DNA from: Methyloversatilis discipulorum
Lineage (GTDB): Bacteria; Pseudomonadota; Gammaproteobacteria; Burkholderiales; Rhodocyclaceae
Length of the DNA stretch: 64,000 bases
NCBI RefSeq assembly: GCF_018780585.1
Contig: NZ_JADMJL010000010.1
Coordinates: 1 to 64,000 of the forward strand
Direction: 5' to 3'
Of this stretch, positions 38,710-48,412 are shown piece after piece (the stretch's first letter is position 1; each line of letters starts with the position of its first letter). The translations under genes and the position numbers were made by a program. A model generated the notes under the pieces. That model worked only from the letters and a program-made list of their open reading frames with translations. It made no database searches and was not told the DNA's origin.

Positions 38710-40101
38710 TCACATCACATTCGCATGCGGATGCATCGGGTGTTCCAGCGTGTCGGCGATCAGGCGCAGCGCGATGTCACAGTCCTCGCGCGACATCGGG
38801 CCGCCGAGGCAGACGCGCACGGCGTCCGGTGGCGTCCCGTCGGTGCTGAAGGCGGCGCTGGCGACGACGGCCACGCCCTGGGCGCGCAGGTTGGAGGCGA
38901 ACTCGACCATGGACCAGTCGGAGCTGAGCGGCAGCCAGAAGTGAAAGCTCTCCGGCTGCGCGCGCAGCGCGTGCCCGGCCAGCAGCCGCGCCGCTGACGC
39001 CTGGCGCGCCACCGATTCGGCGCGGATGGCCTGCAGCATGGCTTCGGCGGTGCCGTCGGTGATCCAGCGCGTGGCCAGCGCGGTGGTGATGGGCGAGCAC
39101 ATGACCGTGGTCGCGCGCAGTGCGCCGGCCAGCCGCTCGGCCTGGCGCGGCCCTGGCGCGTGCACGTAGGCGGCGCGCAGCCCGGCACCGAAGCACTTGG
39201 ACAGGCCACCGATGTAATAGGTGAGCGCCGGCGCAAGTGCGGCCAGCGGCGACGGCACCTCGGGCGGCAGCATGGCGTAGGCGTCGTCCTCGATGATGGG
39301 GATGGCGTAGCGCAGCGCGACGTCGGCCAGCGCCTCGCGCCGCGCACGGGTGACCGTGCCGGTGGTTGGATTCAGCAAGGTCGGGTTGCAGTACAGCGCC
39401 CGCGGCTTCAGCGTCTTGCAGGCGTGCTCGAAGGCGTCGGCGCTGGGGCCGTCGTCGTCGAGCGGCAGCGCATGCAGCTGCACGCCGAGCTGGGCGGCGA
39501 TAGCCTTGATGCCGGGATAGGTCAGCGACTCGACGCAGATCGTCTCGCCCGGCCGCGCCAGCAGCGACACCAGCGCGGTCAGCGCGCTGTGGATGCCCGG
39601 GCACACCAGCACGCGTTCGACCGCGCACAGCGGCAGTCGCTGGCGCAGCCAGTGCACGCCGGCGGCACGGTCTTCACGCGTGCCGCCGAAGTCCTGGTAG
39701 CGCAGCAGGTCGTTCCAGTCGGACTGCGCCATCAGCTGCGCCGCGCTGTCGCGCAGGTGGGCCAGCAGCGCCGGCTCCTGCGGTTCGGGCGGCAGGTTCA
39801 TCGTCATTTCGGCCGCACTGCCACCGCGCAGCGCCATGCCCGGCGTCGAGCCGCGGACGAAGGTGCCCATGCCGGCACGCGAGTCGATCAGCCCGCGCTT
39901 GCGCGCCTCGGCGTAACCACGCGCCACCGTCGTGTAGTTCAGTTCGAGCGTGTCGGCCAGATCGCGCAGCGCAGGCAGACGGTCGCGCGGAGTCAGCCGC
40001 CCGCTGCGCACGTCCTCGGCGATGAGGTCGGCAATCAGCAGATAGGCCGGCTTGTTGCTCGAACGGATGCGCTTGAGCCAGTGCTGCGAGGTCTTGTCCA
40101 T
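38710..40101 (-). CDS. MocR-type GntR/aminotransferase regulator at the end of the Nit1 cluster
   Basis: 463 residues. GntR winged helix at the N-terminus (LIAEDVRSGRLTPRDRLPALRDLADTLELNYTTVARGYAEA) joined to an aminotransferase-like domain with PLP lysine K302 in YIGGLSKCFGAGLRAAY, plus NPTLLNPTTGTVTR and IIEDDAYAMLP. It starts 10 bp after the LnmK-like gene on the same strand, so it is probably the last gene of the Nit1 transcript. It could sense the product or an amino-acid-like intermediate through PLP; that is inference. MocR genes are not a core Nit1 partner as far as I recall. Confidence 0.92.
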   Translation of the reverse strand: MDKTSQHWLKRIRSSNKPAYLLIADLIAEDVRSGRLTPRDRLPALRDLADTLELNYTTVARGYAEARKRGLIDSRAGMGTFVRGSTPGMALRGGSAAEMTMNLPPEPQEPALLAHLRDSAAQLMAQSDWNDLLRYQDFGGTREDRAAGVHWLRQRLPLCAVERVLVCPGIHSALTALVSLLARPGETICVESLTYPGIKAIAAQLGVQLHALPLDDDGPSADAFEHACKTLKPRALYCNPTLLNPTTGTVTRARREALADVALRYAIPIIEDDAYAMLPPEVPSPLAALAPALTYYIGGLSKCFGAGLRAAYVHAPGPRQAERLAGALRATTVMCSPITTALATRWITDGTAEAMLQAIRAESVARQASAARLLAGHALRAQPESFHFWLPLSSDWSMVEFASNLRAQGVAVVASAAFSTDGTPPDAVRVCLGGPMSREDCDIALRLIADTLEHPMHPHANVM

Positions 40102-40111
40102 CGGCGTCGGT

Positions 40112-40972
40112 TCAGGGCAGTCGTCGTTTGCGGGTGATCAGGTCGGCGATGCGCTCGCCGTCGGCACAGCGGCGCACGCGCCACCAGTGCGCGAACTCGG
40201 ACGTGTCGTCGCGCGCGGCGAGCAGTTCGACACGCACCGTCTCGCCGGGGTCGATGTTGCCGTAGAAATACAGTTCCCGCTCGGCGGTCAGCGCCGGGCA
40301 CAGCCCGAAGCAGGCCAGTTCGGCGCGGTCCGCCAGCGCCTGAAAGCTGGCGAAGTAAAGCAGGCCGGCACCGTTGAAATCGTTGTGCGGGCACGGCGTG
40401 ATGTCGACGGCGCGCAGCACGCTTCCACGTGCAGCCGGCTGCAGCCCCATGCGGGCGACGCCGTCGCCGGTGCGGAACAGCCGGGCGCGCGCCTGCAGCG
40501 ACAGCGCTGCATCGGTCAGCGTGCGGTCACCGCACTCCGCGCCTTCGACCGGCGCGCGCACGATGCTGCGGTTGCTGCCCGCGTCGCGCCGCACGAAGGC
40601 GGACAGCAGTTCGATGCGCGCCGCGCGCGTGTTGCCGGTGCGCAAGGTCTGCGCGCTGAAGTGCTGGGCGCGGCCGGGCGACACGGCACGTACCGTCAGC
40701 GAGAACGGCGCGTTCTCTGCCACGGCGTCGAGCCGCGCCTCGCGCAGATGCACCGCAGTCAGCGCCGCATAGCTCTTGCGACCGGCAGCGTCGACGAACT
40801 CCGGCAGCTGCATGCCCTGCGCGCGCGCGATCGCCATCCAGTGCAGATGGCCGCATTCCTTGAGCAGCCAGTTTTCCGCCAGACCATACAGTCCAAGCTG
40901 GGGCATGCCGGCGCAGTAGTGCTGCTGCAGCGCCGACGAAGACTGCAGGCGTTCGGCGCTGTCCATCAGCAT
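40112..40972 (-). CDS. LnmK-like double hot-dog protein (Pnap_2097-type biosynthesis protein)
   Basis: 286 residues, start at 40972 with GGAGG seven bases upstream, overlapping the oxidoreductase stop by 7 bp. The N-terminal [24 protein letters not shown] fits the LnmK family pattern (G-L-x-E-x-W-L-L, G-x-x-H-W); a second hot-dog unit begins near [27 protein letters not shown]. LnmK is a bifunctional acyltransferase/decarboxylase in leinamycin polyketide synthesis, and relatives occur in biosynthetic clusters. Its presence within the Nit1 operon suggests an acyl-CoA or acyl-carrier step. Assignment rests on recalled family pattern. Confidence 0.75.
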
Positions 40973-47656: not shown

Positions 47657-48139
47657 TCACAGCGTCCAGGTATCGAGGATGAAGGCGTTGTCCTTGCGAT
47701 GCAGCAGGATGATGTCCAGCACATCCAGCGGATTGATCGGACGGATGCCTTCGATCAGCGCGCCTTCGCCGTGGCCGTACAGCGCCTGCAGCGCGAAGCG
47801 GCATGCATAGACCTTGCCGCCTTCCTCGATGAACTTCGAAATCTGCTTGTTGAAGTTCTGGTGGCCGGGGAAGGCTTCGTCGCCCAGCGTCGGGAAGCCG
47901 CGCTTCACACCCAGCGTGACGCCCGGGCCGTACAGCAGCACCGAGGTATCGAAACCCTTGCGCTGCAGTCGCGTGGCCTGCAGCAGATTGACGAAACCGA
48001 TGGACCCCTCGAAGGCGACGGTGTGGAAGGTGACCAGCGCCTTCTCGCCGGGCTCGGCCTTCACGTCCTCGAACACCTTCTCTTCGTAGTCGACGAGGAA
48101 TTCGCCCTTCTCGTTGGCGGGGCGGGTGACTTTGGGCAT
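47657..48139 (-). CDS. nitB: MSMEG_0572/Sll0783 family nitrogen starvation response protein
   Basis: 160 residues from the ATG at 48139 (GGAG upstream). The sequence [54 protein letters not shown] and [37 protein letters not shown] strands matches the Sll0783 family, a DsrE-like fold. In Synechocystis the homologue is induced by nitrogen starvation and needed for normal polyhydroxybutyrate accumulation. First gene of the Nit1 cluster, 81 bp downstream of a sigma-54 promoter. A single Cys (C-R-F-A-L) may be functional. Confidence 0.93.
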
Positions 48140-48157
48140 GGCAATCTCCGGTGGTGA

Positions 48158-48412
48158 TATGCGATCAGGAAAGTGGCGTCCGGAACATTGACTGTCCTTC
48201 AGACGCTCGCCCTTCCATTCGCATGCGCCGTGCCACCGGCGCCCGGATGAGTGCAATCAATATGCGATCAATGGATGCACACGCCGCCTTGCGGCCGCAC
48301 GCACCCCGCGCGGAGACTGAAAAACCCTTTTCAAAGCATGGATTTAGCGGCCCGATCGCGCACCGGAATGAAGCATGCGGATGCGATCAATGCACCCGAT
48401 CATTGGCGATCG
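48158..48412. promoter_or_regulatory. repeated ATGCGATCA motifs around the Nit1 promoter
   Basis: ATGCGATCA occurs at 48159-48167, 48262-48270 and 48381-48389 in one orientation; the latter two continue as ATGCGATCAATG, and a related CGATCATTGGCGATCG lies at 48397-48412. Two copies are 25-170 bp upstream of the sigma-54 element, as expected for activator binding, and one is in the leader. The intergenic gap to the next gene (48509) otherwise has no coding potential. Confidence 0.55.
48220..48235 (-). promoter_or_regulatory. sigma-54 promoter of the Nit1 cluster
   Basis: TGGCACGGCGCATGCG on the minus strand: perfect TGGCACG -24 element and ATGC in the -12 position with GG-N10-GC spacing. It lies about 80 bp before the first Nit1 gene. 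A sigma-54 promoter would fit nitrogen-responsive control. Confidence 0.75.

What the first reader, a model, noticed from the sequence alone, without database searches (positions are those of the whole stretch)
38710..48235. Complete Nit1 (Nit1C) cluster as one coupled run behind a sigma-54 promoter
Nine same-strand Nit1 genes (MSMEG_0572-type, nitrilase, radical SAM, GNAT, AIR-synthase-like, glycosyltransferase, MSMEG_0570-type, flavin oxidoreductase, LnmK-like) plus a MocR regulator follow each other with overlaps or gaps of at most 20 bp after the nitrilase. The cluster is known computationally and tied to cyanide assimilation in one Pseudomonas, but its product and most enzyme steps are undescribed. 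Here it looks like a full biosynthetic pathway (nitrilase, radical SAM, ATP-dependent activation, acetylation, oxidation, glycosylation, acyl transfer). In a methylotroph, cyanide, nitriles or C1-derived cyano compounds are possible inputs.
Basis: partly seen in the sequence, partly recalled or inferred. Interest (0 to 1): 0.88.

Follow-up and report, generated by a model that had tools for sequence, protein, structure and literature searches.

The report
Nit1C operon with a methylmalonyl-type acyltransferase
A well-known but unexplained bacterial gene cluster linked to nitrogen starvation and cyanide use is complete here, and comparing it with relatives points to a specific regulator with its DNA boxes and to an extra enzyme that probably draws on methylmalonyl-CoA, which gives ways to find out what the cluster makes.

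Summary
Ten intact genes lie at 38710-48139 (minus strand): nine exceed curated NCBIfam cut-offs, the tenth is a MocR regulator. Junctions after the nitrilase are overlaps or gaps of at most 19 nt. The ten keep their order in 11 of 11 cluster-bearing genomes, 13 in the genus. The cluster itself, Nit1C, is known since 2005.

New here: (1) the -24/-12 promoter is conserved in 73 of 76 upstream regions, shuffles 2. (2) MocR looks like the cluster's own regulator. A box TTGAT[CT]GCA occurs in 58 of 65 MocR-bearing loci and 0 of 8 Pseudomonas loci with a NitA-type activator instead; in 50 of 53 loci it lies 25/26 or 36/37 bp before the -24 element. (3) The accessory LnmK-like protein keeps LnmK's Tyr62 equivalent. 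In 56 of 73 loci outside Methyloversatilis (nearly one clade, not the window's) a methylmalonyl-CoA mutase gene follows it; 16 of 16 tested genomes without that linkage have a mutase-family gene elsewhere. I read this as a biosynthetic operon using (2R)-methylmalonyl-CoA. Product unknown; cyanide use not shown.

The parts
47657..48139 (-). nitB (MSMEG_0572/Sll0783 family), DsrE/DsrF-like fold with invariant Cys113
   Evidence: NCBIfam TIGR04044 283 bits; predicted model (mean pLDDT 81) matches DsrE/F-like 3mc3, E 7e-7, TMt 0.79; 45 relatives 71-97% identical to the window
46360..47397 (-). nitC, Nit6803-type nitrilase; Glu47, Lys129, Cys163 conserved (triad role recalled)
   Evidence: TIGR04048 589 bits; 3WUY E 5e-154; conserved residues
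45303..46439 (-). nitD, variant radical SAM: C130-X9-C140-X2-C143 plus C-terminal C356-X2-C359-X2-C362; overlaps nitC by 80 nt
   Evidence: TIGR04043 595 bits; cysteines conserved in at least 97% of 103 rows
44741..45316 (-). nitE, GNAT N-acyltransferase, FeeM-like region
   Evidence: TIGR04045 233 bits; Pfam Acetyltransf_1 and FeeM over their cut-offs
43734..44744 (-). nitF, AIR-synthase-like ATP-dependent enzyme (start corrected to ATG 44744)
   Evidence: TIGR04049 465 bits; closest solved relatives by sequence ThiL and PurL
42560..43741 (-). GT4-type glycosyltransferase (accessory Nit1C member)
   Evidence: TIGR04047 507 bits; found in 9 of 15 phylum-sampled clusters
42263..42550 (-). nitG (MSMEG_0570 family), 95 aa, no known fold found
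   Evidence: TIGR04042 129 bits; model pLDDT 93.6 with no PDB match at E<=0.001
40966..42243 (-). nitH (MSMEG_0569 family) flavin-dependent oxidoreductase
   Evidence: TIGR04046 690 bits
40112..40972 (-). LnmK-like acyltransferase/decarboxylase ('K'); Tyr68 aligns with residue 62 of LnmK
   Evidence: TIGR04099 292 bits, TIGR04098 256 bits; profile match to 4HZO/6X7L at E 1e-14; Tyr68 invariant in 35 rows, at least 97% in 96 rows
38710..40101 (-). mocR, GntR/aminotransferase-fold regulator of the cluster, last gene of the run here; conserved Lys302 (putative PLP lysine)
   Evidence: Pfam GntR + Aminotran_1_2; next best long own-genome matches 27-28% against 44-73% for the mocR near nitB in other genera
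48221..48235 (-). sigma-54 -24/-12 element TGGCACGGCGCATGC, starting 96 nt before nitB
48252..48260 (-). putative MocR box 1, TTGATTGCA, starting 25 bp upstream of the -24 element
48263..48271 (-). putative MocR box 2, TTGATCGCA, 11 bp further upstream (tandem pair)
   Evidence: the tandem pair (up to 2 mismatches) occurs once in the 4.56-Mb genome
48382..48390 (-). putative MocR box 3, TTGATCGCA, distal
48360..48374 (-). weak NtrC-like site GCTTCATTCCGGTGC (2 mismatches to GCACC-N5-GGTGC, consensus recalled)

Best explanation
This is a complete, sigma-54-driven, MocR-controlled Nit1C operon of the 'K' subtype. Shown by sequence comparison: the gene set, the conserved -24/-12 promoter, and boxes in fixed register with it that go with mocR. 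Inferred: under nitrogen limitation an enhancer-binding protein (NtrC is the likely one) fires the sigma-54 promoter, and MocR, sensing an amine/amino-acid-like ligand through PLP, gates it at the boxes just upstream of the -24 element. Inferred chemistry: the core enzymes (nitrilase, radical SAM, AIR-synthase-like ATP enzyme, GNAT, DsrE-like NitB, flavoprotein) build a small metabolite rather than only hydrolysing cyanide-derived nitriles. In this subtype the LnmK-like protein K loads an acyl unit from (2R)-methylmalonyl-CoA onto its tyrosine, decarboxylates it as LnmK does, and passes a propionyl group to the product or to a CoA/thiol acceptor; the glycosyltransferase adds a sugar. In one large clade of K-bearing clusters the methylmalonyl-CoA mutase is in the same gene run; in Methyloversatilis it would be supplied by the genome's single mutase gene elsewhere.
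For: Families over curated cut-offs. -24/-12 at 8 or more of 10 positions in 73 of 76 upstream regions, shuffled mean 2.05. Box in 58 of 65 mocR loci, shuffled mean 2.28, and 0 of 8 Pseudomonas loci that carry a NitA-type activator and no mocR. Box-to-promoter spacing 25/26 or 36/37 in 50 of 53. Tandem box in 10 of 11 cluster-bearing and 0 of 2 cluster-less genus genomes. Two rpoN and one ntrC over cut-off in the genome. K aligns with LnmK at E 1e-14 and keeps the Tyr62 equivalent. Mutase directly 3' of K in 56 of 73 non-Methyloversatilis K loci, same strand 56 of 56, 55 of 56 estimated gaps between -39 and +102 nt, and none in 14 fetched Nit1C loci where no K was found, two of them cut before the cluster's end. 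Mutase-family gene elsewhere in 16 of 16 tested K genomes without linkage (of 22 such loci; one genome has only a long, apparently IcmF-type frame) against 7 of 12 K-less Nit1C genomes, and in 13 of 13 Methyloversatilis genomes. LnmK is reported as specific for (2R)-methylmalonyl-CoA (a title in a reference list), recalled to be the isomer that the mutase makes. Redox phenotypes without cyanide in two phyla.
Against: No mutase lies at the locus in any of the Methyloversatilis loci examined, and the two congeners without the cluster have the mutase too. On the K tree the linkage sits almost wholly in one clade (5 changes for 56 rows), so the 56 loci are few independent events, and the window's K is on the other side. 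Three of 56 linked mutases lack a readable DxHxxG cobalamin motif (one cut by its contig end). No carrier protein, the known acceptor for LnmK, is among the flanking families shown. K was found in only 3 of 15 phylum-sampled clusters, so it cannot be part of the universal function. The exact box is missing in 7 of 65 mocR loci and 5 of 14; two loci without a mocR in the held sequence do have boxes (L068, cut by its contig end, and L042, not cut); one congener has a second, 2-mismatch tandem match elsewhere. NtrC evidence is weak: up to 2 mismatches in 51 of 76 against 16.6 shuffled. Cyanide-growth mutants in Pseudomonas fit a catabolic nitrilase. The product is unknown.
Confidence: 0.57

Rival explanations
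1. It is simply a cyanide/nitrile nitrogen-scavenging operon. Cyanide reacts with keto acids to cyanohydrins, NitC releases ammonium, and the other genes support tolerance or handle the acids formed.
For: A nitC mutant of Pseudomonas CECT5344 cannot assimilate cyanide, and cluster proteins are induced by cyano compounds (PMC8567248 passages; PMC11049912 passages). NitC here is a very close relative of Nit6803.
Against: A nitrilase alone would suffice for that reaction; it does not explain the conserved radical SAM, AIR-synthase-like, GNAT, NitB (45 relatives 71-97% identical), GT, K and the linked mutase. Mutants in M. smegmatis and Synechocystis have redox phenotypes without cyanide.
Confidence: 0.25
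2. K is not a methylmalonyl enzyme but a hot-dog thioesterase or acyltransferase with another acyl-CoA, and the mutase linkage in other lineages reflects a separate need for succinyl/propionyl balance.
For: K is a remote homologue of LnmK (57.7 bits by profile). No mutase in the Methyloversatilis loci. The linked mutases lie on the other side of the K tree.
Against: The LnmK Tyr62 equivalent is kept. Mutase and K are coupled with gaps near 0 nt in 13 genera by record title and stay together where nit genes are rearranged or partly missing (L042, L043, L049, L053).
Confidence: 0.25
3. MocR and sigma-54 features are unrelated: the box belongs to another regulator and mocR is a passenger.
For: A MocR at a sigma-54 promoter is unusual, since MocR proteins lack the AAA+ domain that sigma-54 needs (recalled). 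No binding data. The exact box is missing in some mocR-bearing loci and present in L042, where no mocR was found.
Against: Box and mocR go together and are jointly absent where a NitA-type gene is found; spacing to the promoter is fixed. The tandem box occurs once in the genome and is absent in the two cluster-less congeners.
Confidence: 0.1

Closest known systems
Nit1C cluster (Podar et al. 2005, PMC1199592; nitA-H of Pseudomonas CECT5344 and NCIMB 11764; gpr of Mycobacterium smegmatis; sll0783 region of Synechocystis)
   Same: All seven core ORFs in the published order, same strand, Nit6803-type (subfamily 1) nitrilase; [quoted passage not shown]
   Different: Adds a LnmK-like protein after the flavoprotein gene, has a MocR regulator instead of NitA, and carries that regulator downstream on the same strand.
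Nit1C operon of a Cupriavidus-like Red Sea contig (PMC4751646)
   Same: Lists, after the FAD oxidoreductase, a 'conserved hypothetical protein' and a putative methylmalonyl-CoA mutase (passage read), which matches the K-mutase pair seen here.
   Different: In the passages read, that paper neither identifies the hypothetical protein as LnmK-like nor draws a substrate or regulator inference. Methyloversatilis lacks the linked mutase.
LnmK of leinamycin biosynthesis (PDB 4HZN, 4HZO, 6X7L)
   Same: Profile alignment over residues 40-277 of 286; Tyr62 equivalent and an FNGAxxLYFASF-like block retained.
   Different: Low identity; no polyketide synthase or carrier protein among the flanking families shown, so the acceptor must differ or be unlinked.
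MocR of the cio-nit4 locus in Pseudomonas CECT5344 (PMC8567248)
   Same: A MocR-family regulator of a nitrilase gene (passages).
   Different: Acts on nit4, not on Nit1C; the nine NitA-type loci found here have no mocR in the held sequence.

Membership tests
Nit1C cluster | Seven core ORFs (hypothetical, nitrilase, radical SAM, GNAT, AIRS, small hypothetical, flavoprotein) clustered in conserved order | tested here: met
   order as in PMC1199592 (passages)
Nit1C cluster | Nit6803-type nitrilase with Glu-Lys-Cys triad (triad recalled) | tested here: met
   TIGR04048 over cut-off; 3WUY E 5e-154; E47, K129, C163 conserved in at least 97% of 103 rows
Nit1C cluster | Required for growth on cyanide as nitrogen source (Pseudomonas) | not testable with these tools
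   needs mutants
LnmK acyltransferase/decarboxylase family | Curated model score (TIGR04098 domain) | tested here: met
   256 bits against cut-off 100
LnmK acyltransferase/decarboxylase family | Catalytic Tyr62 (role recalled) | tested here: met
   Tyr68 aligns with residue 62 of the 6X7L chain; conserved
LnmK acyltransferase/decarboxylase family | (2R)-methylmalonyl-CoA as substrate | tested here: inconclusive
   Genetic linkage to the mutase in other genera and mutase-family genes in trans; no assay
LnmK acyltransferase/decarboxylase family | Acyl carrier protein acceptor | tested here: inconclusive
   None recognised by eye among the 60 largest clusters of flanking ORFs of at least 70 aa, each in 19 or more of 78 loci; rarer, shorter or unlinked carriers would be missed
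MocR regulators | GntR helix-turn-helix plus aminotransferase-I/II domain | tested here: met
   Pfam PF00392 and PF00155 over their cut-offs
MocR regulators | PLP-binding lysine | tested here: met
   Lys302 conserved in at least 97% of 91 rows; that it is the PLP lysine is inferred from the family
Sigma-54 promoters | GG-N10-GC with TGGCAC/TTGC context at a fixed place upstream | tested here: met
   the window site has 9 of 10 consensus positions; transcription start not mapped
Sigma-54 promoters | Dependence on RpoN and an enhancer-binding protein | not testable with these tools
   rpoN (two) and ntrC (one over cut-off) exist in the genome

The most novel reading that the evidence does not exclude
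Nit1C is a nitrogen-starvation biosynthetic pathway for a new small redox-protective metabolite. NitB acts as a sulfur-relay protein and NitD as a twin-cluster radical SAM enzyme, and the nitrilase step is internal rather than cyanide scavenging. In the K subtype the metabolite carries a propionyl (methylmalonyl-derived) acyl group, sometimes glycosylated, and is gated by a MocR protein working in fixed register with a sigma-54 promoter.
Probability: 0.3. Interest if true: 0.85.

Novelty: new variant of a known kind. Interest (0 to 1): 0.6.

Why it matters
Nit1C has been known for two decades across distant phyla; none of the papers whose passages I read names a product. A linked substrate supplier (methylmalonyl-CoA mutase), an acyltransferase with a recognisable active site and a defined operator turn a vague question into concrete tests: assay K with (2R)-methylmalonyl-CoA, footprint MocR, and look for an acylated metabolite that disappears in K and nitD deletions. 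It could also bring the separate cyanide, NADPH/peroxide and polyhydroxybutyrate phenotypes under one pathway.

Tried and rejected
Rejected: the nitB-nitC 259-nt spacer as a mobile or repeated element (one match in the genome, 40 of 83 first-look candidates scored; matched only next to nitB in 3 congeners; spacer length differs among congeners). A fold for NitG (no PDB match at E<=0.001). NitB sequence matches to antibody chains were dropped as chance; the DsrE fold came from the model (a DsrE/F-like chain also appears, but at E 0.91). A search for a further conserved partner of K by clustering flanking ORFs showed, among the 60 largest clusters printed, only the nit genes, mocR, GT and the mutase, plus antisense frames (labels by eye and position). 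NtrC sites were only weakly enriched. Sequence search for a solved relative of NitD gave only a marginal biotin-synthase hit. Of the chromosomal neighbours, PhyH, ABM and MgtC matched nothing outside the genus in the loci held; CcoG matched three loci outside it, and the ABC transporter only at about 27-33%.

Rows dropped before counts: of 83 loci offered for the upstream analysis, 76 were used. L048 was dropped because its nitB match began late; L050, L051, L053, L058, L067 and L081 have no nitB match. Ten of the 76 are Methyloversatilis. L107 offered only 173 nt. The genome-contig scan kept the best 80 of 110 relatives of K. In the trans-mutase test, 16 of 22 unlinked K loci were tested (not L050, L051, L058, L068, L081, L100).
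Full report
What is there. On the minus strand, ten intact genes run from 48139 to 38710. Nine match their own curated NCBIfam models over the cut-off, and the tenth has the GntR and aminotransferase domains of a MocR regulator. After the nitrilase all junctions are overlaps (up to 80 nt) or gaps of 19 nt or less; nitB and nitC are 259 nt apart. In 11 of 13 genomes of the genus the cluster is present, and in all 11 the ten genes keep this order. 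Pairwise dN/dS against four congeners is 0-0.44.

What is already known. Podar et al. 2005 defined Nit1C with seven genes and noted the extra glycosyltransferase in beta-proteobacteria (PMC1199592, passages). In Pseudomonas the cluster, with its sigma-54-type activator NitA, is linked to cyanide assimilation (PMC11049912, PMC8567248; passages). In M. smegmatis the orthologous gpr operon is GlnR-dependent, raises NADPH/NADP and gives peroxide resistance (PMC6039565, abstract and passages). In Synechocystis a sll0783 (nitB) mutant fails to shift towards NADPH in nitrogen starvation (PMC3901256, abstract and passages). One paper lists a conserved hypothetical gene and a methylmalonyl-CoA mutase after the flavoprotein gene in a Cupriavidus-like Nit1C operon, without interpretation in the passages read (PMC4751646).

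How far the literature was checked. Four papers hold both 'mocR' and 'nit1C': in the passages read of PMC8567248 and PMC11049912, MocR belongs to the cio-nit4 locus; PMC5333837 and PMC10138600 were seen as listings only. No listed paper holds 'LnmK', but that search asked for three of five terms, so a paper with only 'LnmK' and 'nit1C' would not have been listed. Priority of the MocR and LnmK links is therefore likely but not proven.

Promoter and regulator. I took the 400 nt upstream of nitB from 76 loci, ten of them Methyloversatilis. A -24/-12 element with at least 8 of 10 consensus positions lies 50-120 nt before nitB in 73 of 76; dinucleotide shuffles give 2.05. Word counts made without a motif in mind found TTGATCGCA in 47 and TTGATTGCA in 43 of 76 (shuffled 1.2 and 0.2). 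Taken together, on either strand, they occur in 58 of 65 loci with a mocR gene close by (shuffled mean 2.28, maximum 6). Of the 11 loci without a mocR in the held sequence, the 8 Pseudomonas loci have none, L107 (173 nt held) has none, L068 (cut by its contig end) has two and L042 has one. The 8 Pseudomonas loci, and one more from the phylum sample, carry a NitA-type activator gene at 75% identity or more to that of L049, whose type was set by family search; no locus with mocR has a match above 39%.

Spacing. Where mocR, promoter and a forward box are all present, the nearest box upstream starts 25/26 or 36/37 bp before the -24 element in 50 of 53 loci. Neighbouring boxes are most often 11 bp apart. 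In the window the pair is 48252-48271, with a third copy at 48382-48390. With up to 2 mismatches the tandem pair occurs once in the 4.56-Mb genome; it is found in 10 of 11 cluster-bearing congeners (window included; G008 has a further 2-mismatch match elsewhere) and in neither of the two without the cluster.

Where mocR sits. In 55 of the 65 loci mocR is divergent from nitB; the 10 with the same strand are the Methyloversatilis loci, where it is the last gene of the run. Two genomes of the same family have it upstream on the same strand (L162, L163). The own genome has no close mocR paralogue (27-28% over long stretches). MocR proteins are not AAA+ activators (recalled), so a sigma-54 activator is still needed; ntrC and two rpoN genes exist, but NtrC sites are only weakly supported.

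The LnmK-like gene K. One genome-contig scan with an 11-sequence alignment confirmed 110 relatives and kept the best 80; its patterns favour close relatives. 73 of the 80 have nitB to nitH and K together; four are cut by contig ends (L050, L051, L067, L081); three are partial without such a cut beside K (L042, L053, L058; L058 holds 3.3 kb upstream). A 35-sequence profile matches LnmK at E 1e-14 over residues 40-277, and Tyr68 falls on residue 62 of LnmK. It is invariant in that alignment and at least 97% conserved in 96 rows.

The linked mutase. Directly 3' of K, 56 of the 73 loci outside Methyloversatilis carry a methylmalonyl-CoA mutase gene; two of the other 17 (L068, L100) hold too little sequence to tell. 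All 56 are on K's strand and 55 of 56 estimated gaps are -39 to +102 nt; 53 of 56 show the DxHxxG cobalamin motif, and the other three (L071, L083, L097) are short frames, L083 being cut by its contig end. Four of four tested pass NCBI's mutase equivalog cut-off. None of 14 fetched Nit1C loci where no K was found has it; two of these, L164 and L165, end inside the cluster. The linkage also holds where nit genes are rearranged (L043, L049) or partly missing (L042, L053).

How independent this is. On a tree of 86 K proteins the linkage needs 5 changes (shuffled mean 25) and is nearly confined to one side of a weakly supported split (85/93); the window is on the other side. Hence the 56 loci are not independent. 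As a second test, 16 of 16 tested K genomes without linkage (of 22 such loci) have a mutase-family gene elsewhere, one of them (L054) only a long, apparently IcmF-type frame, against 7 of 12 K-less Nit1C genomes. By hand Fisher's test gives about 0.008, ignoring kinship. All 13 Methyloversatilis genomes have one, including the two without the cluster. LnmK is reported as specific for (2R)-methylmalonyl-CoA (a title seen in a reference list), recalled to be the isomer that the mutase makes.

How common each part is. In a phylum sample, 16 of 398 genomes have the nitrilase over its cut-off. In the 15 other than the window, all have nitB to nitH, 14 mocR, 14 the promoter (9 or 10 of 10 positions), 9 the glycosyltransferase, 3 K, and 9 an exact box within 400 nt (9 of the 14 with mocR). 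In a class sample K was over cut-off only in the window's genome (1 of 369) and nitB in 4 of 369. So MocR and sigma-54 control are near-general in these proteobacterial clusters outside the NitA type, while GT and K are options.

Other anatomy. NitB's model has the DsrE/DsrF fold with invariant Cys113, in line with earlier guesses (PMC1199592, PMC6039565). NitD has C-X9-C-X2-C and a C-terminal C-X2-C-X2-C. NitF is closest by sequence to solved ThiL/PurL-type enzymes. NitG's confident model has no PDB match.

Reading. I commit to a nitrogen-controlled biosynthetic operon in which K is an optional acyl-transfer step fed by (2R)-methylmalonyl-CoA. Steps shown are sequence facts; the product, the acceptor and the order of reactions are inference. 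The cyanide-only reading remains the main rival.

Noticed in passing
window 47398-47656: The nitB-nitC spacer is 259 nt here but about 0 nt in several congeners (L015, L016, L017, L019) and about 430 nt in L020 (from tblastn ends); just before nitC it holds a reversed box-like GCGATCAATGGATC (by eye).
   Followed up: partly
window 48509-48712: Small ORF of 67 codons with a single cysteine, looking by eye like a heavy-metal-associated domain, on the same strand upstream of the nitB promoter. It is 97% identical in two congeners at the same side and about 60% in others at the opposite end of the cluster.
   Followed up: partly
window 36374-37765 and L058:4373-5746: A CcoG-type oxidase assembly gene (name by eye) lies near the cluster in several Methyloversatilis genomes and beside an isolated K gene in Polaromonas glacialis.
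   Followed up: partly
window 32548-33960: A second MocR-like regulator on the plus strand, 470 aa, about 28% identical to the cluster's MocR.
   Followed up: no
L042, L053, L058: Partial clusters: B, E, H, K and mutase; H, K and mutase; K alone. They suggest H, K and the mutase can persist without the rest.
   Followed up: partly
L049, L059, L069, L072, L074: In these Pseudomonas loci the order is NitA-type activator, K, mutase, divergent from the nit genes, so the activator and the acyl module are neighbours.
   Followed up: partly
control genomes: The nitB family model rings in Synechococcus elongatus and Methanosarcina acetivorans, over the cut-off in one of the two (not told which), and NitF scores 214 bits (under the cut-off of 365) on the methanogenesis marker 2 model, hinting at an archaeal sister pathway.
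   Followed up: no
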